Source of the DNA: Maricaulis sp.
Lineage (GTDB): Bacteria > Pseudomonadota > Alphaproteobacteria > Caulobacterales > Maricaulaceae
Direction of reading: 5' to 3'
NCBI RefSeq assembly: GCF_030149515.1
Contig: NZ_JASBRI010000006.1
Location: 1-64,000 of the forward strand
Length of the DNA stretch: 64,000 bases
Shown here piece by piece: positions 2,929 to 12,630 of this stretch. The notes under the pieces are model-generated. The model worked only from the letters and a program-made list of their open reading frames with translations, searched no databases and was not told where the DNA came from. Made by a program: the position numbers and the translations under genes. Every line of letters starts with the position of its first letter. The stretch's first letter is position 1.

Positions 2929-4923
2929 TCAGGGCGTTACGACGGGGAAATCGGAATCGGGCTGTTCCAGCATGCCGAAGAAGCCGTAGAGGGCCCGTCG
3001 GTCTCCGTCCACGGAGAAGTCCTCGGAACCCAGCATGTCGAGCAGGCCCGCCTCCTGCCGCATCAACCGGGTCCAGAAATTCCGCGTCAGGCTCACAGTC
3101 GCGTCCGCATCGTCGGCCGCGTTGCCGCGCCGGTGGTGCATAACGCCGTTCGAGATCACGATCACGTGCGTCTCCCCAACATCGGTGAAGACGAAATTGA
3201 ACACCCGGTCGGCGCGAGCCGCCCGCAATCCGTCCAGTCTAGTCGCCAGCGCCGCAAAGAACATGTCGAGCGGAATGGCATCGAGTATCTCCGCTCCGGC
3301 ACCGACCGTATCCGAGGCAGCGATTCCGTGTCGCAATTCATGGGCACCCGTCAGATATACGTCTCGCCAGGGTGCGGACTCCGCTCCATAGCCCAGCTGC
3401 TCGTATGACCGGGCCAGCACGTCACGGGCACCGCCATGGTCCGGTTCGGCGAACACAGCGTGCTGGGCCAACTCGGCTGCCCATCGATAGTCCCCGGTCG
3501 CGAAGGCGGCCTCAGCCTGTTCCACAGTCGCCTCGATGCCACCGATGGCCCCGACATACCGCTGCGCAGCTTGGATGCGCGGTAGCGGGTCGAGATGAGC
3601 GGGAACCCCGTCATACCAGCCAAAATACCTCTGATAGACGGCGCGCGCATTGTGTTTCAGTGTTCCGTAGTAGCCGCGCACCGCGAAAACCTCGCCCAAG
3701 GTATCCGGCAGTGCGATCTCTTCGGCGATTTCGTCCGGTCCGAGCCCTTGCGCCGCCAAGCGTAGCGTCTGGTCATGAATGTATTTGTAGACATCGCGTT
3801 GAGCGACCAGGAAGGCTTCGGCCTCGGCGCGCCCCCAGACCGGCCAGTGATGGCTGTTGAAGATGACGTTGGTACGTCCGGCGAACATTCGCCGGGCGTC
3901 CTCGATCGCGGCTGACCATGCCAGCGCATCGCGCACCTGCGCACCACGCAGGGTGTAGAGATTGTGCATGGTGCGGGAGACGAGTTCGGCCCCGCACCAT
4001 GCCTCGAAGTCAGGGAAAAAGACCGTCAGTTCCGCGGGAGCCTCGGTTTCCGGCGCATACTGGAACTCCATACGCACACCATCGATTTCCAGGATCTGGC
4101 CCGACCGGTCGATCAGGATATCGGGCTCGGCGATTGTATGGGTTCCCAGGGCCGGATGCTTGCCCAGGCCCGAGTCCACATGCCCGCGCGCTGTACGCGG
4201 CAAAGGCCCGCCATACATGAATCGCGCACGCCGGCCCATCACGACTCCGGCCATCACGTTTTCGCTGACCGCAGCATTGAGAAATCCTGCTGGGGCGATC
4301 ACCGGCGCCGCGCCCTCCCCCGTCGCCTCCTCGATCGCAGCTACACCGCCGAAATGGTCGATATGGCTGTGGGTAAAAATTACGGCGGAAACCGGCCGGG
4401 GGCCCAATTCGCGCTCGACCAGATCGAGCGCCGCCCGAGCCGTCTCGACGGACGTCAACGGGTCGATCACGATCCGGCCGTTTTCACCTTCAACAATGGA
4501 CATATTGGCCAGGTCGTAGCCCCGCACCTGGTAGATGCCCGGCACCACTTCGAACAAGCCGTGAACCGCATTGAGCCGGGCCTGCCGCCACAAGCTGGGA
4601 TTGACGCTGTCGGGCGGCGCACTGTCGAGAAAGGCGAAAGCGGCTGTGTTCCACACCGTTTGCCCGTCCTGTGTCCGTATGTCGACAAGATCGTCCCGAG
4701 CCAGAAGGCCTCGCTGTGCCAAATCCTCGTCGTCCGGCTCCAGGCCTTCCAGCCATTCAGCCACGGCGCCGTTCATCTCGGCGGTCGTTCGTTGAGCCGG
4801 CCAGGCCCCGTGTGGATCGGCACCGGCTTCACCGGACGCGGACGGACCGGGAACGGGCGAGCACGCTACCAACACAGACAGCATCGCGCCTGCGGCCACT
4901 CCCGAAAAACGCAGCCAAGCCAT
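2929..4923 (-). CDS. Alkyl sulfatase-type metallo-beta-lactamase-fold hydrolase, probable lipoprotein
   Basis: A 664-residue protein of the SdsA1/BDS1/YjcS alkylsulfatase family, which hydrolyses primary or secondary alkyl sulfate esters with two zinc ions. The binuclear motif THSHIDH is at about 184-190 and is followed by GG. Family order is visible: N-terminal MBL domain (about 120-390), alkylsulfatase dimerisation domain (about 400-530) and a C-terminal SCP2-like domain (about 540-664) that binds the alkyl chain. The N-terminus ends in a lipobox, LVAC with Cys at 21, so the mature protein is probably lipid-anchored, whereas many homologues have ordinary signal peptides. Start ATG 4923 has a GGGGGAAGG ribosome site. 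It is divergent from the Crp/Fnr gene, sharing a 159-bp intergenic region. Exact substrate not established. Confidence 0.85.
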   Translation of the reverse strand: MAWLRFSGVAAGAMLSVLVACSPVPGPSASGEAGADPHGAWPAQRTTAEMNGAVAEWLEGLEPDDEDLAQRGLLARDDLVDIRTQDGQTVWNTAAFAFLDSAPPDSVNPSLWRQARLNAVHGLFEVVPGIYQVRGYDLANMSIVEGENGRIVIDPLTSVETARAALDLVERELGPRPVSAVIFTHSHIDHFGGVAAIEEATGEGAAPVIAPAGFLNAAVSENVMAGVVMGRRARFMYGGPLPRTARGHVDSGLGKHPALGTHTIAEPDILIDRSGQILEIDGVRMEFQYAPETEAPAELTVFFPDFEAWCGAELVSRTMHNLYTLRGAQVRDALAWSAAIEDARRMFAGRTNVIFNSHHWPVWGRAEAEAFLVAQRDVYKYIHDQTLRLAAQGLGPDEIAEEIALPDTLGEVFAVRGYYGTLKHNARAVYQRYFGWYDGVPAHLDPLPRIQAAQRYVGAIGGIEATVEQAEAAFATGDYRWAAELAQHAVFAEPDHGGARDVLARSYEQLGYGAESAPWRDVYLTGAHELRHGIAASDTVGAGAEILDAIPLDMFFAALATRLDGLRAARADRVFNFVFTDVGETHVIVISNGVMHHRRGNAADDADATVSLTRNFWTRLMRQEAGLLDMLGSEDFSVDGDRRALYGFFGMLEQPDSDFPVVTP

Positions 4924-5036
4924 CGCCTTCCCCCGAGATCATTGATCCTGCGCACTAGCGCGTGCGCCCGGAATTGACGATGATGCCCGGCGCAACGACA
5001 AGATGCTAGGCCGTGACTTGGTGTTCCCGGCGACTG

Positions 5037-5050
5037 TTGATAATTATCGG
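5037..5050. promoter_or_regulatory. FNR-box-like site TTGATAATTATCGG
   Basis: TTGAT, four bases, ATCGG matches the FNR consensus TTGAT-N4-ATCAA at 12 or more of 14 positions counting the free spacer; its core GATAATTATC is a perfect palindrome. It sits 32 bp before the ATG of the Crp/Fnr-family gene and also in front of the divergent alkylsulfatase gene, so autoregulation or joint control is plausible. Function is inferred. Confidence 0.4.
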
Positions 5051-5082
5051 ATCGACGCAACTGGTTGTACGAGGGAACGCTC

Positions 5083-5769
5083 ATGGAGCCGGATGAGGCG
5101 TGGAACATGGCCCTGGATGCGCTGGACATTATGGAGCCCGAAGCGCGGGATGCATTGATGTCCACCGCTGAAATCCGGCATGTCGATGCGAACACCACGA
5201 TCATCTCTCAGGACGATGAGGATGATCACGTCTATGTACTGCTCGAGGGTTCGGCGCGCGTGGTTCTCCTCTCCGAGGGCGGTCAGGAAATCTGGCTCGA
5301 CTGGTTCGGCGCCGGTGCGATCTTCGGCGAGTTGGCGGCCTTGACCGGAAAGCGCCGCACCTCGGAGATCGTCACGGAAACCGATTGCCGCGTAGCAGTC
5401 ATCACCGGACCCCAATTCTTTGACCTGATGCGCAATCACGGCGCGTTCGGGCTGGCGCTCGCAAAGATTCTCGCCGCCCGCATTCATCACACAACGCAGC
5501 GCATGTTCGAACTCTCAGCGCTCTCGGCACCGGGCCGCATATACGCCGAACTGCTACGCATGTCCGAACCCTCCGCAACGCACTCGACCAGCCGGACGAT
5601 CCGGATTGCACCGTCGATGACGGAGTTGGCGAGACGGGTGAACACTACTCGCGAAACCACGTCGCGAACGGTCAACGACCTTGAACGGCGAGGCCTGCTC
5701 AAGCGCAGCGATCGTTCGTTCGAGCTGGTCGATCCCGACTTGCTAAACCGGATGCTCGGATCGGGTTGA
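5083..5769 (+). CDS. Crp/Fnr-family transcriptional regulator
   Basis: A 228-residue regulator with an N-terminal cyclic-nucleotide-binding-type beta roll (about 20-130), a dimerisation helix and a C-terminal winged helix-turn-helix (about 150-225). The recognition helix reads TRETTSRTV: it keeps the Arg-Glu and Arg of E. coli CRP (R180, E181, R185) but has Ser where FNR has S212, so it could read a TGTGA-like or a TTGAT-like half-site. FNR's N-terminal Fe-S cysteines are absent, so direct oxygen sensing by that route is unlikely. The cNMP pocket segment is FGELAALTGKRRTSEI, close to the CRP phosphate-binding cassette, in which the usual Arg-Ser/Thr is present as Arg-Thr. I chose ATG 5083 (GAGGGA 7 bp upstream) over TTG 5065. 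Its last 27 bp overlap the convergent cyclase-like gene. Confidence 0.88.
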   Translation: MEPDEAWNMALDALDIMEPEARDALMSTAEIRHVDANTTIISQDDEDDHVYVLLEGSARVVLLSEGGQEIWLDWFGAGAIFGELAALTGKRRTSEIVTETDCRVAVITGPQFFDLMRNHGAFGLALAKILAARIHHTTQRMFELSALSAPGRIYAELLRMSEPSATHSTSRTIRIAPSMTELARRVNTTRETTSRTVNDLERRGLLKRSDRSFELVDPDLLNRMLGSG

Positions 5770-7584
5770 TACGGCATCGGCGCGCGCCGTGAGCGATCCC
5801 GGCGCAACGGCTCGCAAGGTATAGAGGGGCATCGCCGGCAGCAGCGGATCAATCTCCGTGAGGCCGACATATTCGCACCGAAATTCCGGCTTTTTGGACA
5901 TCGCCAAGCGCGCCGCGAAGATCTCGCTGACAAAGATCGACCCCGGCACGGTCACCCGCTCGATCCGGGAGGCGATTGCGACCTGACCGCCAAACGGGAC
6001 CCGGCGCTGCTGTACCGGGTCCACGCCCTCATGTACGGGACCGCAATGCCCGGCAATTCGCAGTCCGAGCGACGGAGGCAGACCGGCCGCTTCCAAGTCG
6101 ATCCCGGAAAATTCACGCCGCAAGGTCACTGCGGCCCGTGCCGCCTGATCGACATCATCAAACGCGAAGAACAGTCCGTCGCCCCAGCTGTCGGCATAAA
6201 GCGGCGGGCTTTCCAGCTGATCGCATGTGCCGGCCAACCGGCCGAGCACTTCGCGCACGAAGCAGGGAATCCGGTCGTCTGGCACCGCGGACGATCCGCG
6301 GACATCGAGAAACAGCATGGCCCGCATCGCGGGCTCGAACTCGCTCCGTGCGACCGGCTGCGGCTGTTGCGAGCAAGTGACAGTGCCGTCGGGGCGATCG
6401 AAAGGGATCACACATTGCGGAGAACCCGTCTGGCGCCACATCTCGGCATCGCGTGCTGTCCCAAAGCGTGCAGCACCGGTTGTCCGGCCGTCATAGGCGA
6501 GCAACTGAACAGGACGGGTCGCAAGAACGTCGGCACGGATCTTCGCCAGGCCCATGGCAACCGCACTGGCATGATTGAGATTGAGCTCCGAGACAATCTG
6601 CCTGTCGGTAGTAACCTCGACAATATCGGTCGCCCGTTCGAGGCAAGCCTCGTAACGGCGAACCCAAGCCGCACCGAACGGCCGGACGGAGGTCTCCATG
6701 AAAACGGCAACCGGCACAGGCAGGACAACCGTCAGCGGACACCCCGCCCCCAACGCGACCTCCGCGATTACAATATCAGCACCGGCCGCCATCGCGCCGT
6801 AGACCGATCCGATGTTTTCCCGCTGCAGCACGTCGGCAACGGCCTTTCTCAGCTCGGTTTCGCGGCGCCTCGACACAGCGCCCTTGCCGGTTCCGGTACG
6901 GAAGATGTGACCGGCAAAATGGGCGGGACGCGGCGGTTCAAGGCTTGCCAGCCAGGAGTCCGATACCCCCAGCGCCGCAGCCACAATGCGCAATTGCCGC
7001 AGGGTCGTGGCATGCGCGATGAAATTCTCTCGATCAGAAGCGATTGCGGCGCGCAGGGCCAGATTTGCGGCGCCTGGCTCGCCCAGGAGAAGATAGGCCT
7101 CCGCCTCGGTCGCCCTTCGATAGTAGGCAGCTTCCGGATCGCCGGCCCTTGCCTGCCGGCTGGCCGCAAGGGCCTGGCGCGCCAGGTCGGTTGCGCGTGC
7201 CATATCCCCGGACAGACAGTACATGGTCGCGGCATTGATACCTGGATAGTGGCCGCCTGTCTGGTCGAATACATGCGCATATTTTTCTGCCGATTCCCGT
7301 GCCTTCGCTGCGAATCCGGCCACCTCTGCTTCAAAGGCAATCGCTTTCAGCAAGCGCGCGCCCAGCGCCAGACAGTCCTCGTTGTGCCGAGCCTCGGACA
7401 GGCGGAAACGCCGGTAGTCCGCTTCCGCCCGTTCAAGCGCGCCGGATCGGATCAAACAAAGCACGGCCCGGTCCTGGAGCCAGAGATCGTGTGGATCTTC
7501 CTGCAATGCCTCCAGACACAGATCGTAGGATCGAGCCAGATCGCCTCGCTTGAAACGTTTCGCAATACGGTCACGCTGTCCCAT
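5743..7584 (-). CDS. TPR (TRAFs-binding-like) / SLOG-like / class III cyclase-like fusion
   Basis: A 613-residue soluble protein with three parts. Residues 1-215 are helical TPR-like repeats of the kind annotated as TRAFs-binding domain. Residues about 220-365 resemble a SLOG-type Rossmann nucleotide-sensing domain (GAMAAGADIVIAEVALGAG, then a TVVLP strand). Residues about 415-565 are a class III nucleotidyl cyclase-like domain: metal-binding Asp in LFLDVRGSS (about 427) and GDGLFFAF (about 469) are present, but the transition-state Asn expected in the V-N-x-A-x-R segment is Ala (VAIASR, about 535-540) while the Arg remains. Activity is therefore uncertain. Start ATG 7584 has GGAG 5 bp upstream. 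It is the last gene of a run with the unknown 201-residue gene and the TIR-TPR gene, all on the minus strand. It overlaps the convergent regulator by 27 bp. Confidence 0.8.
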   Translation of the reverse strand: MGQRDRIAKRFKRGDLARSYDLCLEALQEDPHDLWLQDRAVLCLIRSGALERAEADYRRFRLSEARHNEDCLALGARLLKAIAFEAEVAGFAAKARESAEKYAHVFDQTGGHYPGINAATMYCLSGDMARATDLARQALAASRQARAGDPEAAYYRRATEAEAYLLLGEPGAANLALRAAIASDRENFIAHATTLRQLRIVAAALGVSDSWLASLEPPRPAHFAGHIFRTGTGKGAVSRRRETELRKAVADVLQRENIGSVYGAMAAGADIVIAEVALGAGCPLTVVLPVPVAVFMETSVRPFGAAWVRRYEACLERATDIVEVTTDRQIVSELNLNHASAVAMGLAKIRADVLATRPVQLLAYDGRTTGAARFGTARDAEMWRQTGSPQCVIPFDRPDGTVTCSQQPQPVARSEFEPAMRAMLFLDVRGSSAVPDDRIPCFVREVLGRLAGTCDQLESPPLYADSWGDGLFFAFDDVDQAARAAVTLRREFSGIDLEAAGLPPSLGLRIAGHCGPVHEGVDPVQQRRVPFGGQVAIASRIERVTVPGSIFVSEIFAARLAMSKKPEFRCEYVGLTEIDPLLPAMPLYTLRAVAPGSLTARADAVSTRSEHPV

Positions 7585-7627
7585 ACGCACTCCACCAACC
7601 ACTGCACGGACAACGTATCAGGGATTA

Positions 7628-8233
7628 TCAGGGCGGAGTGAGTTCGATTTTGGGGTCGATAATGACCCGTGTCGCCTGGTTGCCCGCATCCTGGGACGCC
7701 TGAATGAACAACGCGAATTCATAGCTGCCGGCAGTTTCACACCGTGTGTCGATCTTGAAACTGTACGGCGCACAGCTGGCACCGTTGAGTATAAGCCAGT
7801 CCAGGCCGCAGAATTCTCCTTCGGGGAAAACGGATTTGAACTTGATGCGGGCGGGCTCGAATCCCCAACCGGGAACGTGGACATGAAAGATGAGGCGGGC
7901 CGGTGCCGTCACCTCTTCGTCGAAAGGACAGGTGCTCACCGTGCTGCACGGCGTCCAAAGACCGCTAAGTGCGGCCATGACCGCCGTTCGCAGCGTGGAC
8001 GTGTCCGCATTGGGATATTGAGAGACCACGTCAGCGAACGTGACGAAGATGGATGAGATGTCGGAATCGTCGAACGTCTCGCGATCAGCATCGCTTCCGT
8101 GAACCACGACAAATCCGTCGGTGGCTTTCGCCACAAGAGCGAGCTGCGTTCGGGTCGGCGCAAATCCGCATTCTGCTTCCAGTTCCGGCTGGATCACTGT
8201 CCCGTCGAAGATGTCCTTGTCTATGCTGGGCAT
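7628..8233 (-). CDS. Hypothetical protein, TIR/cyclase neighbourhood
   Basis: A 201-residue protein I do not recognise. It has no signal peptide or clear membrane segment and begins MPSIDKDIFDGTVIQ. The N-terminal half contains a mixed alpha/beta pattern (LALVAKATDGFVVVHGSD), and the C-terminal half is beta-rich with paired aromatic and hydrophobic strands (ARLIFHVHVPGWGFEPARIK). Eight or so cysteines are spread through the chain (ECGF, TPCSTVSTCPF, FCGL, SCAPY, TRCET), unusual for a cytosolic protein of this size. Start ATG 8233 has AGAGGGG upstream; an earlier GTG/TTG-type start at 8257 is less convincing. It lies 60 bp after the TIR-TPR gene and 43 bp before the TPR/SLOG/cyclase-like gene, so it is probably co-transcribed and may be an adaptor or effector partner. 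No function is claimed. Confidence 0.7.
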   Translation of the reverse strand: MPSIDKDIFDGTVIQPELEAECGFAPTRTQLALVAKATDGFVVVHGSDADRETFDDSDISSIFVTFADVVSQYPNADTSTLRTAVMAALSGLWTPCSTVSTCPFDEEVTAPARLIFHVHVPGWGFEPARIKFKSVFPEGEFCGLDWLILNGASCAPYSFKIDTRCETAGSYEFALFIQASQDAGNQATRVIIDPKIELTPP

Positions 8234-8293
8234 AGCTATCCCCTCTTTTGCCCCCAATAAACCGCCTCAAGCACGAGGCCCTGCGCATACACA

Positions 8294-10333
8294 CTACTCG
8301 GCGCTCAAACGCTCGCTTTCCAGCATCGCCAACGCCTGGCGGTATTGAGCCCGGGCGTCGGCAGGCACCCGGTGCATGACCGGTTCCAGCCGGTTCACCA
8401 TGGTTTCCCGGACGCGCGCCGCCTCCGGGCCTTCGCCCTGCCGCTCCAGCAGCTCCGCGAAGGTATTGGTCGCAGCGGCGTAGAGATAAATCCCCTTGGT
8501 GAGGCGTCCGGACCAGTCCTCGACCTGGCTCAGCGACACCAAGAGATGCTCTAGGGACAACCGGGCCGAGTCATTGTCGCCCATCGCCATGAATATCCGC
8601 GCCTCGACCAGCGCTGCATGAAGCCGCGTATCTTCAAATCGCAACCCTTCGACAGCCGCCCAGGCCGAATGGGCCATGAAGGCAGTCGCGTCCAGATATG
8701 CCTGTCGCGCACCATCGACATTGCCGCTGAGCAGATTGGCCTCAGCCAGCCAGATCCGCTGGCGAATGCCCAGGAGCCGCCATTCCAGATTTGCAGGATC
8801 GTGCTCGATCAGGGCATCGGCCTCGTGCGAGGCCGCCGTCAGTATGTCCAACGCTGCCGCGATACCCTCGGGCCGGCTTTGCGAACCAGCGGCCATATAA
8901 AGCCGCGCCAGGCTATACTCCGCCGACATGGCGCTCCGCCGAACACTCCAGTTGTCCGAATCGGCCAGTTCAGCCTCGTAGACACGAATCTGGTCACGAA
9001 CGAAACGCATCGCGACTTCACGCCCGTCCAGGGGCTCGGATACGTGCGCCATCCAGGCATAGGCGTCTGCGACATCGATCCAGGCCTGCTCGGATGCGCC
9101 CGACTGTTCCGCTATCCGAACAAACAGGTCCAGGGCCTGACGGAACTCGTCGCGCGCCACCTCGAACCGTCCCTGACCGACATAGAGCGTGCCGAGATTT
9201 GAGTGGGCATACGCCGCCTCGGCCTGCCATTCCAGATTATCCGGATCGTTCCCGAGCAATTGCTCGGACAGGTCGCGATACTCGACGAACCTGGCTTCGG
9301 CTGTTTCCAGGTCGGAGCGCCGCCAGGCGAAGTAACCGGCCCAATAGGCGCTTTGGGAGTGTTCGTAGATCCGCGCCGGAGAAGTCGGCTCCACGGCCAG
9401 GATGCGGCTGGTGGCCTCATATGCCGTTACGAAGTGACGATAGGCATTGTCCAGATCACCTTCGGCGCTGTCGATCTCGCCGAGGAGGTGGAATGCCCTG
9501 GCCCGGCGCCCCAGATCGTCCGGCGACATCTGGCGCGGATTCTGATCGTCATAGTATTCGATGACCTTCTCTCCGACAGCGTCAAGAACATCCAGTCGGC
9601 CAACGGGTTCCAGTTTCAAACGCAGATCGCTGAGCATGAATTCGATCAAATCCTCTGCCTCGGCCTTGCGCCGTTCAGCTTCGGATTGGGCCGAAATCGC
9701 AAACAGCGTCAGGGTGGCCATGATAAGCGACAGGGCAATCGAACTGCCTGTGATCGCCGTCACACGCCTTTGCCGGCGTTGCAAGTCCCGCTGGATAAGC
9801 TGATCGAGCCCCAGATCCAGAAGACCGGCGACCAGTTTGAGCAGCGCCATGCGGCGTCCGTCGCCACGCGGGCGGAAATCGGCCGCGACAGGTTCCGGTA
9901 CACCGTCTCCGGACGTCCGCAGGTTGGGCGGGAAACATTCCAGGTCGGACGCCATGCCGGCCGCCTCCGCGCCCGGTTCGCCGGCGACGACCGCGGCAAG
10001 GATATCGCCATCGGGGTTGATCTCGCGAAAGACACGGATCTCCTCGTTCACCCAGCGCGACCTTGCCGCGGCCGGAGAACACAGAACGATCAGGGTCTGC
10101 GAGTTCCCCAGCGCCTCACGCACCGAAGCCGACAGATCGCCGGATGCCGGAAGGTCCTCGCGATCCCGGAAAATCGGGGACAGGCGCCGGGGGACTTCGC
10201 CCTTTCCGGTTACCTGGCCGACCAGACGGGACGGCACGCGATAAGTCTCGAGCGCCCGGTGCAGCCGGCGCGCCCTTCCCTGATCGTCATGGCTGTAACT
10301 GATGAAAGCCCGATAGCGGCCGCTCGCGGTCAT
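8294..10333 (-). CDS. TIR-domain protein with transmembrane helix and TPR array
   Basis: A 679-residue protein. Residues about 7-165 form a TIR domain: it opens with YRAFISYSHDD, has the loop PIFRDREDLPASGDL, the strand TLIVLCSP and the helix RSRWVNEEI, which carries the Glu position (about 97-98) required for NAD+ cleavage in catalytic TIRs. A single hydrophobic segment (about 192-214) follows a basic stretch, so the TIR is expected in the cytoplasm and the rest in the periplasm by the positive-inside rule. Residues about 265-679 are TPR-like helices (for example HLLGEIDSAEGDLDNAYRHF). Start ATG 10333 is preferred to an upstream in-frame start at 10390 because the TIR motif begins just after it. 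It heads the three-gene minus-strand block. NAD+ hydrolase or signalling scaffold are both possible. Confidence 0.85.
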   Translation of the reverse strand: MTASGRYRAFISYSHDDQGRARRLHRALETYRVPSRLVGQVTGKGEVPRRLSPIFRDREDLPASGDLSASVREALGNSQTLIVLCSPAAARSRWVNEEIRVFREINPDGDILAAVVAGEPGAEAAGMASDLECFPPNLRTSGDGVPEPVAADFRPRGDGRRMALLKLVAGLLDLGLDQLIQRDLQRRQRRVTAITGSSIALSLIMATLTLFAISAQSEAERRKAEAEDLIEFMLSDLRLKLEPVGRLDVLDAVGEKVIEYYDDQNPRQMSPDDLGRRARAFHLLGEIDSAEGDLDNAYRHFVTAYEATSRILAVEPTSPARIYEHSQSAYWAGYFAWRRSDLETAEARFVEYRDLSEQLLGNDPDNLEWQAEAAYAHSNLGTLYVGQGRFEVARDEFRQALDLFVRIAEQSGASEQAWIDVADAYAWMAHVSEPLDGREVAMRFVRDQIRVYEAELADSDNWSVRRSAMSAEYSLARLYMAAGSQSRPEGIAAALDILTAASHEADALIEHDPANLEWRLLGIRQRIWLAEANLLSGNVDGARQAYLDATAFMAHSAWAAVEGLRFEDTRLHAALVEARIFMAMGDNDSARLSLEHLLVSLSQVEDWSGRLTKGIYLYAAATNTFAELLERQGEGPEAARVRETMVNRLEPVMHRVPADARAQYRQALAMLESERLSAE

Positions 10334-10604
10334 GATCACCCCGGTTTCCCCAAACGGGCCAATCATCGGGCCAATGCCGGGGCCATGCAACCTTACACAG
10401 CGACGCCAAGAGACCGCCGACGCCGGCTATCAACAGATTTGCGCTGGGTCGTCACCTGTCATGCTACCTGCGAGGCCAATCTGGAGAGCATGGGTCGCGG
10501 CAGTGGAGGGAGGGCAAGGTCGGGGAGGGTTGAAACGCAAGGCGAAGTTGGGGCTTCGCATTGGGCAAGGTATTGCGCCTGACCACATCCCCGACGCAGT
10601 ATGC

Positions 10605-10619
10605 CCTCCCCAGGGGAGG
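10605..10619. repeat. Palindromic element CCTCCCC-A-GGGGAGG
   Basis: A perfect 7-bp inverted repeat with a 1-base centre, followed by GTGTTTGGG and a small GCTC/GAGC repeat. This layout resembles dispersed intergenic palindromic elements common in alphaproteobacterial genomes. Only one copy is visible here, so repeat status is unproven. Confidence 0.4.
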
Positions 10620-10679
10620 TGTTTGGGACCGCTCGCAGTGAGCAGCTTTGGTTTTCTAACAGGTCAAGACCGTCAGCGC

Positions 10680-10695
10680 TGTGATAGGGATCACA
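10680..10695. promoter_or_regulatory. CRP-type binding site TGTGATAGGGATCACA
   Basis: Perfect TGTGA-N6-TCACA, the CRP consensus spacing. It is 347 bp upstream of the TIR gene start and 79 bp beyond the 3' end of edd, so if functional it most likely serves the TIR block. The Crp/Fnr regulator at the other end of the block is an obvious candidate, given its Arg-Glu...Arg recognition helix. Confidence 0.5.
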
Positions 10696-10773
10696 CCCGC
10701 TGTAATTGCGCGCCTTGTCGTTGATCGATACGCTTCAAGGCCACGGCCCGCGCCCCGGCGTGTCAACGCTGGA

Positions 10774-12630
10774 TCATGCGGGAACCGACGGCAGCGCCGT
10801 TTCGGAAACGCCGGCCAGGCCCGGGATGGTCAAACCGCCCTCCTCCGCAGGGCCAGCCAGCTGGCGGAAACCGGTAAACAACTCGCGACCCATACCGATC
10901 TGGGCGATAGGTGGAGCTTGCGTCAAAGGCCGGTCGCCGAAATCATCCACTTCGACCGTGAGCCTTCCCGAGGCCGCATCCAGCACAATCCGGTCACCAT
11001 CGCGCACTTGGGCGATCGGTCCGCCCAGTGCCGCTTCCGGGCTGACATGGATTGCCGCCGGCACCTTGCCTGACGCTCCCGACATACGTCCGTCAGTGAC
11101 CAGGGCCACCCTGAATCCCCGGTCCTGGAGCGAACCCAGTGCCGGGGTCAGTTTGTGCAGTTCCGGCATGCCGTTTGCCCGCGGTCCCTGGAAGCGCAAC
11201 ACTGCCACAAAGTCCCGCTCCAATTCTCCGGTCTTGAAGCGGTCGAGAAAATCTTCCTGACTTTCGAACACGAGGGCCCGCGCTTCGACAGTCCGGTGCT
11301 CGGGCTTGACGGCCGACACCTTGATCACCGAACGGCCAAGATTGCCGTCGAGCACTTTAAGGCCGCCATCCCGGGCAAAGGGTTCGGAGACCGGACGAAC
11401 GATGTCGAGATTGGCGCTTTCGGCGACAGCATGCCGCCACATCACGCCGTCTTCGCCTTCGAAGGGCTCGGCTGCGTACCGGCGCAGCCCCTGCCCCATC
11501 ACCGTCTGGACATCCTCGTGCAGCAGGCCCGCGTCGAGAAGCTCTCGAATAACGAATCCGAGCCCGCCGGCGGCGTGGAAATGGTTCACATCAGCGGGAC
11601 CGTTGGGATAAACGCGGCACAGCAGCGGCGTCGCCGAAGCGAGTTCGTCGAAATCGTCCCAGTCGATGTAGATTCCGGCCGCCCGGGCAATAGCCACAAT
11701 GTGAATGGTGTGATTGGTCGAACCGCCCGTGGCATGAAGCCCCACGATCGCATTCACGATCGAGCGTTCATCGACGATATCGGCCAGCGGAATATAGTTT
11801 TCACCCCCGGCCGTGATCTCCGCTGCGCGCCGGGCAGCGGCCCGGGTCAGCGCGTCGCGTAGCGGATCGTCCGGATTGAAGAAAGCGGCGCCCGGCAGGT
11901 GCAGGCCCATGATTTCCATGAGCATCTGATTGGAGTTCGCCGTCCCGTAGAAGGTGCAGGTTCCCGGTGAATGGTAGGATTTGCTTTCCGCGTCCAGCAG
12001 TGCGTCGCGTCCCACCTTGCCCTCGGCGTACAGCTGGCGGACCTTTGCCTTTTCCGGGTTCGGCAGGCCCGACCGCATCGGCCCTGCCGGTACAAAAATC
12101 ACGGGCAGATGCCCGAAGCGCAACGCCCCGATCAAGAGCCCGGGCACAATCTTGTCACACACCCCCAGGCAAAGGGCCGCGTCGAACATGTTGTGCGACA
12201 GGGCGATCGCCGTACCCATGGCGATGGCATCCCGGCTGAACAGGGAAAGCTCCATACCGGGTTGCCCCTGGGTGACACCGTCGCACATGGCCGGCACACC
12301 GCCGGCAACCTGGCCCACCGCTCCGACATCGTTGAGAGCCTGTTTGATGATGGCTGGAAAGCGCTCGAAAGGCTGATGCGCCGAAAGCATGTCATTGTAG
12401 GCTGTCACAATCCCGATATTGACCGAGTTGCCATCCTTCAGTGCGCGTTTGTCTGCCCCCGGACACGCGGCAAAGCCGTGAGCCAGGTTTCCGCAAGACA
12501 GGACGGAACGGTTCCGCCCGTCTTCGCGCGCGCCGCGCATCTGCGCGATGTAGGCAGAGCGGCTTCGGGCACTGCGCTCGCGGATCCGTTCGGTTACGGC
12601 GGCAATTGTGGGGTTGAGGCTTTGAGCCAT
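10774..12630 (-). CDS. edd: 6-phosphogluconate dehydratase
   Basis: A 618-residue Entner-Doudoroff enzyme that converts 6-phosphogluconate to 2-keto-3-deoxy-6-phosphogluconate, in the cytoplasm. The length and sequence match the IlvD/Edd family: [16 protein letters not shown] near the N-terminus, [20 protein letters not shown] (cluster cysteines) and the C-terminal [12 protein letters not shown]. The substrate-type signature [15 protein letters not shown] and overall length favour Edd over dihydroxyacid dehydratase, and the operon partners zwf and pgl confirm it. Start ATG 12630 has GGAAGG upstream; it overlaps nothing, since pgl ends at 12656. It is the third gene of zwf-pgl-edd. The next pathway gene, eda, and glk are not in this window. 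Confidence 0.96.

What the first reader, a model, noticed from the sequence alone, without database searches (positions are those of the whole stretch)
5743..10333. TIR-TM-TPR + unknown protein + TPR/SLOG-like/cyclase-like block: candidate undescribed signalling or defence module
Three consecutive minus-strand genes combine a TIR domain retaining the Glu position for NAD+ cleavage, a cyclase-like domain and a SLOG-like nucleotide-sensing domain, with TPR scaffolds in two of them and an unknown Cys-rich protein between. TIR, SLOG and cyclase modules are established players in nucleotide-based bacterial immunity, but this gene set, with the TIR protein apparently membrane-anchored and the TPRs on the far side, is not one I recognise as a named system. 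It has its own long leader with a CRP-type site.
Basis: partly seen in the sequence, partly recalled or inferred. Interest (0 to 1): 0.8.

Follow-up and report, generated by a model that had tools for sequence, protein, structure and literature searches.

The report
TIR, cyclase and CRP signalling module

Summary
Confirmed, and larger than reported. P3 is in 18 of 19 genomes of the genus; loci in other genera share few flanking families. The TIR Glu is kept in 67 of 67 P1. CRP pocket and cyclase metal site are intact together in 25 of 25 loci and lost together in 21 of 21, but as one event on the tree. CRP-type palindromes lie upstream of P1 and inside its coding sequence; all 35 P1 genes with the matching peptide carry the full 16-mer, 1.8 expected from codon choice. 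P2's model resembles SO1698, an aspartic peptidase; only Asp-Pro is invariant in 33. None of 80 flanking proteins scanned matches PADLOC at 1e-10 (no control). Best reading: a TIR to SLOG to cyclase to CRP relay; the TIR-to-P3 step and any defence role are inference. Parts match named Pfam families: new variant of a known kind.

The parts
8294..10333 (-). P1: TIR (9983-10306) - basic stretch - TM (about 9689-9745) - TPR; TIR Glu E98 codon at 10040-10042
7628..8257 (-). P2: beta-rich protein, likely start 8233; invariant Asp201-Pro202 at 7652-7657, predicted self-cleavage site
5743..7602 (-). P3: TPR-S (7222-7515), SLOG-like Rossmann domain (about 6388-6957), class III cyclase domain (about 5803-6345); likely start 7584
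5065..5769 (+). CRP-family regulator, cNMP-binding domain and Crp-type HTH, convergent with and overlapping P3 (5743-5769); likely start 5089
10680..10695 (.). CRP-type palindrome TGTGATCCCTATCACA, about 350 bp upstream of the P1 start codon
9749..9764 (.). second CRP-type palindrome inside P1 (codons 190-195), conserved at synonymous positions
10334..10773 (-). long leader / intergenic region upstream of P1; no sigma-70-like promoter found in 10300-10800 and no Rfam match in 4800-10900

Best explanation
A membrane-to-promoter signalling relay. (1) P1 spans the inner membrane with its TPRs outside and its TIR enzyme inside, and is gated by P2, a beta-rich protein that may cut itself at Asp201-Pro202 [inferred]. 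(2) When triggered, the TIR cleaves NAD+ to an ADP-ribose-type messenger [inferred from the invariant Glu]. (3) The TPR-S and SLOG-like domains of P3 sense that messenger and switch on the cyclase domain [inferred by analogy with Thoeris, where a SLOG domain reads a TIR product]. (4) The cyclic nucleotide, most likely cAMP, binds the adjacent CRP [supported by joint keeping and joint loss of cyclase and pocket]. (5) CRP binds two operators, one upstream of P1 and one inside P1, and controls the operon [supported by conserved sites]. The trigger is probably an envelope stress or attack; phage infection is possible but not shown.
For: Gene order kept in 13 of 13 P2-bearing relatives; P3 in 18 of 19 genomes of the genus. 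TIR Glu 67 of 67 P1. Both cyclase metal Asps in 58 of 58 P3 with a strong cyclase match (residue roles recalled). CRP pocket Glu and Arg intact in 25 of 25 loci with both metal Asps and lost in 21 of 21 with an eroded cyclase, while the DNA-reading residues stay in nearly all. Three loci of another P3 branch have a stand-alone cNMP-binding protein beside P3 (L049, L061, L098). Operators: upstream core site in 20 of 40 loci with CRP against 1 of 26 without one in view; intragenic 16-mer in 35 of 35 genes with the peptide V[TMI]x[IV]T, 1.8 expected. Only 10 of 742 flank families span two or more named genera, and two of these ten are the P2-like and the trypsin-like gene. Envelope link: hydrophobic stretch in 65 of 67 P1, PEP-CTERM or trypsin-like neighbours in tested loci of sister groups, lipoprotein-like P2 starts in three Hellea loci.
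Against: The pocket-cyclase match is one change on the tree: one coincident event, not 46. 32 loci have both metal Asps and no CRP nearby. In the 58, the position of the usual base-selecting Lys is Lys in one only, and Ser, Ala or Thr stand for the transition-state Asn in 52, so activity and product are unsure. SLOG identity is weak: the central domain matched one of two LOG sets and not DprA, and the structure search listed only cyclases. No direct evidence that the TIR is active or that P3 senses its product. 8 of 41 P1 genes with CRP in view lack the intragenic site and 20 of 40 loci lack the upstream one. P2 of the window has no evident signal peptide, which does not fit a periplasmic partner of P1.
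Confidence: 0.42

Rival explanations
1. Anti-phage abortive-infection system of Thoeris/Pycsar logic: TIR depletes NAD+ on infection, P3 and CRP tune its expression.
For: TIR matches ThsB_TIR above cut-off; TIR and SLOG-like parts echo Thoeris, cyclase and cNMP receptor echo Pycsar (PMC9503650 passages; PMC11224242 passages); P2 diverges fast; patchy spread (38 of 385 genomes of the class at 1e-10, some matching the cyclase part only).
Against: 0 of 80 flanking proteins scanned match PADLOC at 1e-10 (no control set); settled locus in Maricaulis; P3 not found in phage records or viral contigs; 3 partial plasmid hits only.
Confidence: 0.25
2. A CRP-controlled operon in which the cyclase domain is a non-catalytic nucleotide sensor and CRP answers the cell's general cAMP; TIR and P3 act as a separate effector pair.
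For: Base-selecting Lys and transition-state Asn positions are changed; 32 loci keep the metal Asps without a CRP neighbour; YGTGAYN4RTCACR occurs 3-12 times per Maricaulis genome against 0-3 for the control, 4 times even in G116, which lacks the module.
Against: Both metal Asps in 58 of 58 and the Arg in 57 (one gap), unusual for a dead enzyme; cyclase and pocket are lost on the same branch.
Confidence: 0.22
3. P2 is a nucleotide synthetase, as the Pfam name of PF20301 says, and supplies a further messenger.
For: 9 of 33 P2-family members match PF20301 at E<=1; of ten scanned singly five match, two above cut-off (L041, L108).
Against: The window's P2 does not match; only Asp-Pro is invariant over 33 members; the model's fold matches SO1698 and, just above 0.001, PixA, no synthetase among the first 8.
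Confidence: 0.1

Closest known systems
Thoeris (TIR ThsB + SLOG protein ThsA)
   Same: TIR with the catalytic Glu beside a protein with a SLOG-like domain; probable NAD-derived messenger
   Different: The SLOG-like protein carries TPR-S and a cyclase, no Sir2 match; TIR is membrane-anchored with TPRs; extra P2 and CRP
Pycsar (pyrimidine cyclase + cNMP-binding effector with TIR or TM)
   Same: Class III-type cyclase with a cNMP-binding partner and a TIR in one gene set
   Different: The cNMP-binding domain is on a CRP transcription factor; its base-reading position is Thr/Ser as in CRP, not the Asn of PycTIR; only a negligible match to a uridylate cyclase (E 0.95)
TPR-S (PF20308) and pNTSase1 (PF20301) systems, predicted conflict systems of the Aravind group (recalled; paper not held)
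   Same: TPR-S matches here; pNTSase1 matches relatives of P2; G362 shows a TIR protein, pNTSase1, TPR-S protein and CRP in the same order (TIR and CRP by eye)
SO1698 / DUF1888 self-cleaving endopeptidase (PDB 3njm, 3nji, 3njk, 3njh, 3njl)
   Same: Best structural match of the P2 model; Asp-Pro near the C-terminus is the only invariant pair in P2
   Different: No match in sequence searches; moderate TM (0.54-0.62 by target length); P2 is longer with an added N-terminal part
CRP / catabolite activator
   Same: cNMP pocket, Thr-Thr where the catabolite activator has Thr-Ser, RET..R recognition helix, TGTGA-type palindromes
   Different: Encoded with a TIR-cyclase module; a sister group lacks the pocket

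Membership tests
Thoeris | TIR domain with catalytic Glu | tested here: met
   67 of 67 P1; ThsB_TIR above cut-off
Thoeris | SLOG sensor domain in the partner | tested here: inconclusive
   hhalign to LOG set 1: 16.7%, E 0.0015, motifs in register; LOG set 2: 0.3%; DprA: 0.1%. The recalled kin pairs LOG-DprA scored 1.6% and 0.8%, so the test has little power; unrelated controls E 0.15-0.54
Thoeris | ThsA-type effector (Sir2 or other) fused to SLOG | tested here: not met
   P3 has TPR-S and cyclase instead; no PADLOC match for P3
Pycsar | Class III-type cyclase with both metal Asps | tested here: met
   58 of 58 strong-cyclase P3
Pycsar | Pyrimidine-reading cNMP receptor fused to a TIR or TM effector | tested here: not met
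   Receptor is CRP with HTH; Thr/Ser at the base-reading position in 25 of 25
TPR-S systems (PF20308) | TPR-S domain | tested here: met
   Window P3 36.9 bits against cut-off 27.6; 52 of 52 rows of A5 match at E<=1
pNTSase1 (PF20301) | Match to the Pfam model | tested here: not met
   Window P2: none; 9 of 33 rows of A6 match at E<=1
SO1698 / DUF1888 self-cleaving peptidases | Fold | tested here: met
   7 of 7 hits with E<=0.001 are SO1698 chains, best 7.4e-7
SO1698 / DUF1888 self-cleaving peptidases | C-terminal Asp-Pro aligned with that of SO1698 | tested here: inconclusive
   D-P in 33 of 33, but no residue alignment with SO1698 was available
SO1698 / DUF1888 self-cleaving peptidases | Self-cleavage at Asp-Pro | not testable with these tools
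   needs protein
CRP | cNMP-binding pocket and Crp HTH | tested here: met
   PF00027 and PF13545 above cut-off; alignment to catabolite activator
Known anti-phage systems | Defence-island neighbourhood | tested here: not met
   0 of 80 flanking proteins at 1e-10; 80 of 237 available flank ORFs, 16 of 26 loci listed; no control set scanned

The most novel reading that the evidence does not exclude
A two-messenger relay in which a self-cleaving Asp-Pro protein releases a membrane TIR enzyme, the TIR's NAD-derived product opens a SLOG-gated cyclase, and the cyclic nucleotide drives a CRP that loops DNA between an operator upstream of the TIR gene and a second one kept inside its coding sequence.
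Probability: 0.2. Interest if true: 0.85.

Novelty: new variant of a known kind. Interest (0 to 1): 0.62.

Why it matters
NAD-derived TIR messengers and cyclic nucleotides are usually treated as separate bacterial signals (own knowledge); this module puts both in one gene set that ends at a promoter, and a sister lineage has lost the cyclase and the CRP pocket together, which makes the link testable. The intragenic site is a clear candidate for regulatory DNA kept inside a coding sequence. The SO1698-like fold gives a concrete test for a protein family now labelled a nucleotide synthetase.

Tried and rejected
Defence island: 80 flanking proteins from 16 non-Maricaulis loci (of 237 ORFs in 26 loci, of which 148 were printed for choice) against PADLOC and Pfam; no PADLOC match at 1e-10. 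A Maricaulis control list of 95 ORFs was drawn up but not scanned. Mobile-element origin of P3: phages none, viral contigs none, plasmids three partial hits. SLOG by sequence: the LOG and DprA sets were partly on the wrong strand and are void; one search repeats them and is only suggestive. A sign test on the cyclase-pocket link has no power (one independent pair). Foldseek prints no aligned ranges, so the match of Asp201-Pro202 with the SO1698 site is inferred from its place near the C-terminus and from mutant names in the PDB titles; the cleaved bond 116-117 is recalled. Sigma-70 promoters and Rfam in the leader: none. The 2020 paper of Burroughs and Aravind (recalled) is not held, nor the SO1698 paper. 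Papers: passages seen of PMC8195603, PMC7159879, PMC11224242, PMC9503650, PMC11655445 (it calls the Shewanella sequence a self-cleaving endopeptidase and cites the DUF1888 paper); all others as search listings; none read whole.

Rows dropped before counts: the P2 of G084 (one in-frame TGA) was left out of A1; A5 holds 51 of 80 P3 loci plus the window, A6 32 relatives plus the window; one search kept the best 80 of 213 relatives; cyclase state was left open for L051, L054, L107 (contig ends). The peptide used was chosen after seeing the palindrome.

Full report
What is there. The window lies in a Maricaulis genome (same-genus contigs have the lengths of named Maricaulis records; own genome 2.9 Mb, 30 contigs). 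Three minus-strand ORFs match the finding. P1 has a TIR domain (TIR_2 43 bits, ThsB_TIR 40 bits, both above cut-off), a hydrophobic stretch at residues 197-215 and TPRs. P3 has TPR-S (PF20308, 36.9 bits, cut-off 27.6) and a class III cyclase. P2 matches no Pfam family.

It is a unit. P1-P2-P3-CRP keep order and orientation in 13 of 13 loci compared, 12 Maricaulis and one Woodsholea, all chosen because they hold P2. P3 is in 18 of 19 genomes of the genus; in the other, G116, the neighbouring genes MBL and M14 (190-2871, named by eye) are present with 7.4 kb on the module's side and no module. Of the 80 named P3 relatives kept (of 213), 71 have a TIR gene in the fetched stretch; of the nine others seven have P3 near or cut by a contig end, and two (L061, L069) do not. 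Only 10 of 742 flank families span two or more named genera, two of these being the P2-like and trypsin-like genes, while 73 of 78 Maricaulis pairs share at least two flank families. So the genes travel together, but in Maricaulis they are a settled part of the chromosome.

Catalytic residues. The TIR Glu is present in 67 of 67 P1 (66 relatives picked by a TIR profile at 1e-20, plus the window). In 58 P3 with a strong cyclase match both metal Asps are invariant and the Arg is in 57 (one gap), but the Lys position is Asn in 37 and Asp in 14, and the Asn position Ser, Ala or Thr in 52 (residue roles recalled). 23 of 81 P3 have an eroded or cut-off cyclase. The AF2 model of P3 has mean pLDDT 93.5. 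The central domain alternates strands and helices as a Rossmann-like fold does; its sequence match is in register with one LOG set (16.7%, E 0.0015) but absent from a second LOG set and from DprA, while LOG against DprA, recalled kin, scores no better.

Cyclase and CRP go together. The CRP pocket Glu and Arg are present in 25 of 25 loci whose P3 keeps both metal Asps and absent in 21 of 21 whose cyclase is eroded; the DNA-reading residues are kept in nearly all of both. On a tree of the TPR-S and SLOG-like columns each trait changes once, on the same branch. That is one coincident event, so the Fisher value must not be read as 46 independent cases; replacement by a pocketless CRP/FNR relative is not excluded. 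In another branch a stand-alone cNMP-binding protein sits beside P3 (L049, L061, L098). Against this, 32 loci keep the metal Asps without a CRP nearby (these three are among them). Thr/Ser at the base-reading position (25 of 25) matches CRP rather than the Asn of PycTIR or the Glu of a cGMP receptor described in PMC11224242 (passages), which suggests cAMP.

Two operators. TGTGAN6TCACA occurs three times in the own genome, twice in this module. The core GTGAYN4RTCAC lies within 500 bp upstream of P1 in 20 of 40 loci with CRP and in 1 of 26 without one in view; that one, L054, ends inside P3. A second copy lies at P1 codons 190-195 in 35 of 67 P1 genes: 33 of 41 with CRP in view, 2 of 2 on contigs that end in P3 (L051, L054), and 0 of 24 others. 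All 35 genes with the peptide V[TMI]x[IV]T there carry the full 16-mer, while drawing codons at each gene's own usage gives 1.8. The peptide was chosen after seeing the site, and relatedness makes the 35 less than independent. YGTGAYN4RTCACR occurs 3 to 12 times per Maricaulis genome, 0 to 3 for the reversed pattern, and 4 times in G116 without the module, so other genes, or another CRP, share this sequence.

P2. It diverges fast: 25-72% identity to the window over 12 relatives. Iterated profiles, in a set of only 38 sequences, link 22 of 25 candidate proteins from these loci; L045, L048 and L074 stay out. Over 33 aligned members only Asp201-Pro202 is invariant, with 6 to 18 residues from the Pro on (one search picked a later Asp-Pro in L030, L062 and L078). 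The AF2 model (pLDDT 91.7) matches SO1698 of Shewanella in all seven hits with E<=0.001 (TM by target length 0.54-0.62), and PixA next at 0.0017. PDB titles name D37, S114, D116 and P117 mutants of this 'aspartic peptidase'; that it cuts itself at 116-117 is recalled. Nine of 33 members match PF20301, 'predicted novel nucleotide synthetase', at E<=1. I think the fold and the invariant Asp-Pro speak for self-cleavage rather than synthesis, without proof.

Defence or not. 0 of 80 flanking proteins from 16 loci match PADLOC at 1e-10; no control set was scanned, and P1 itself reaches only 4.7e-7 there. The 25 Pfam families shown of 83 are dehydrogenases, LysR regulators, TonB receptors, P450, FliP and the like. 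Tested loci of sister groups carry PEP-CTERM proteins (L065, L071) or a trypsin-like protein (L062, L082, L099) beside the module, and three Hellea P2 have lipoprotein-like starts (its fourth match, L033, comes from an over-long ORF). I therefore favour envelope sensing, with phage infection as one possible trigger.

Verdict. A real, conserved four-gene signalling module. Shown: gene set, conserved residues, joint state of cyclase and CRP pocket, conserved palindromes. Inferred: TIR activity, the TIR-to-P3 step, cAMP as product, operator function, P2 cleavage. The parts belong to known or predicted families, so it is a new variant of a known kind.

Noticed in passing
G000:C7:42306-42321 (L139:1501-1516): A third perfect TGTGAN6TCACA lies near dprA in the own genome; by eye, a site lies near dprA in 5 of the 10 genomes whose sites were listed in full (own, G009, G038, G092, G503).
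   Followed up: partly
G084:C18:66015-66629 (L009, L022): P2 of this Maricaulis genome has one in-frame TGA; sequencing error or a broken gene.
   Followed up: no
L062:7815-10037, L082:7931-9883, L099:7597-9891: A trypsin-like protein (Pfam), with Ig/cadherin-like domains in L082 and L099, and a P2-like gene lie on the opposite strand between P1 and P3; L087, L097, L100 and L101 have similar long ORFs there.
   Followed up: partly
L065:14532-14975, L071:11767-12858: A Phenylobacterium and a Sphingomonas version have a PEP-CTERM protein beside the TIR gene and no CRP in view.
   Followed up: partly
L045:14545-18080: Kordiimonas carries a second TIR gene followed by a P2-like protein with a long, repetitive-looking N-terminal part.
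   Followed up: no
window 2929-4923 and 190-2871: An alkyl-sulfatase-type metallo-beta-lactamase (Pfam) and an M14-like peptidase (by eye) flank the module; tblastn finds them in 9 and 12 of the 12 Maricaulis loci.
   Followed up: no
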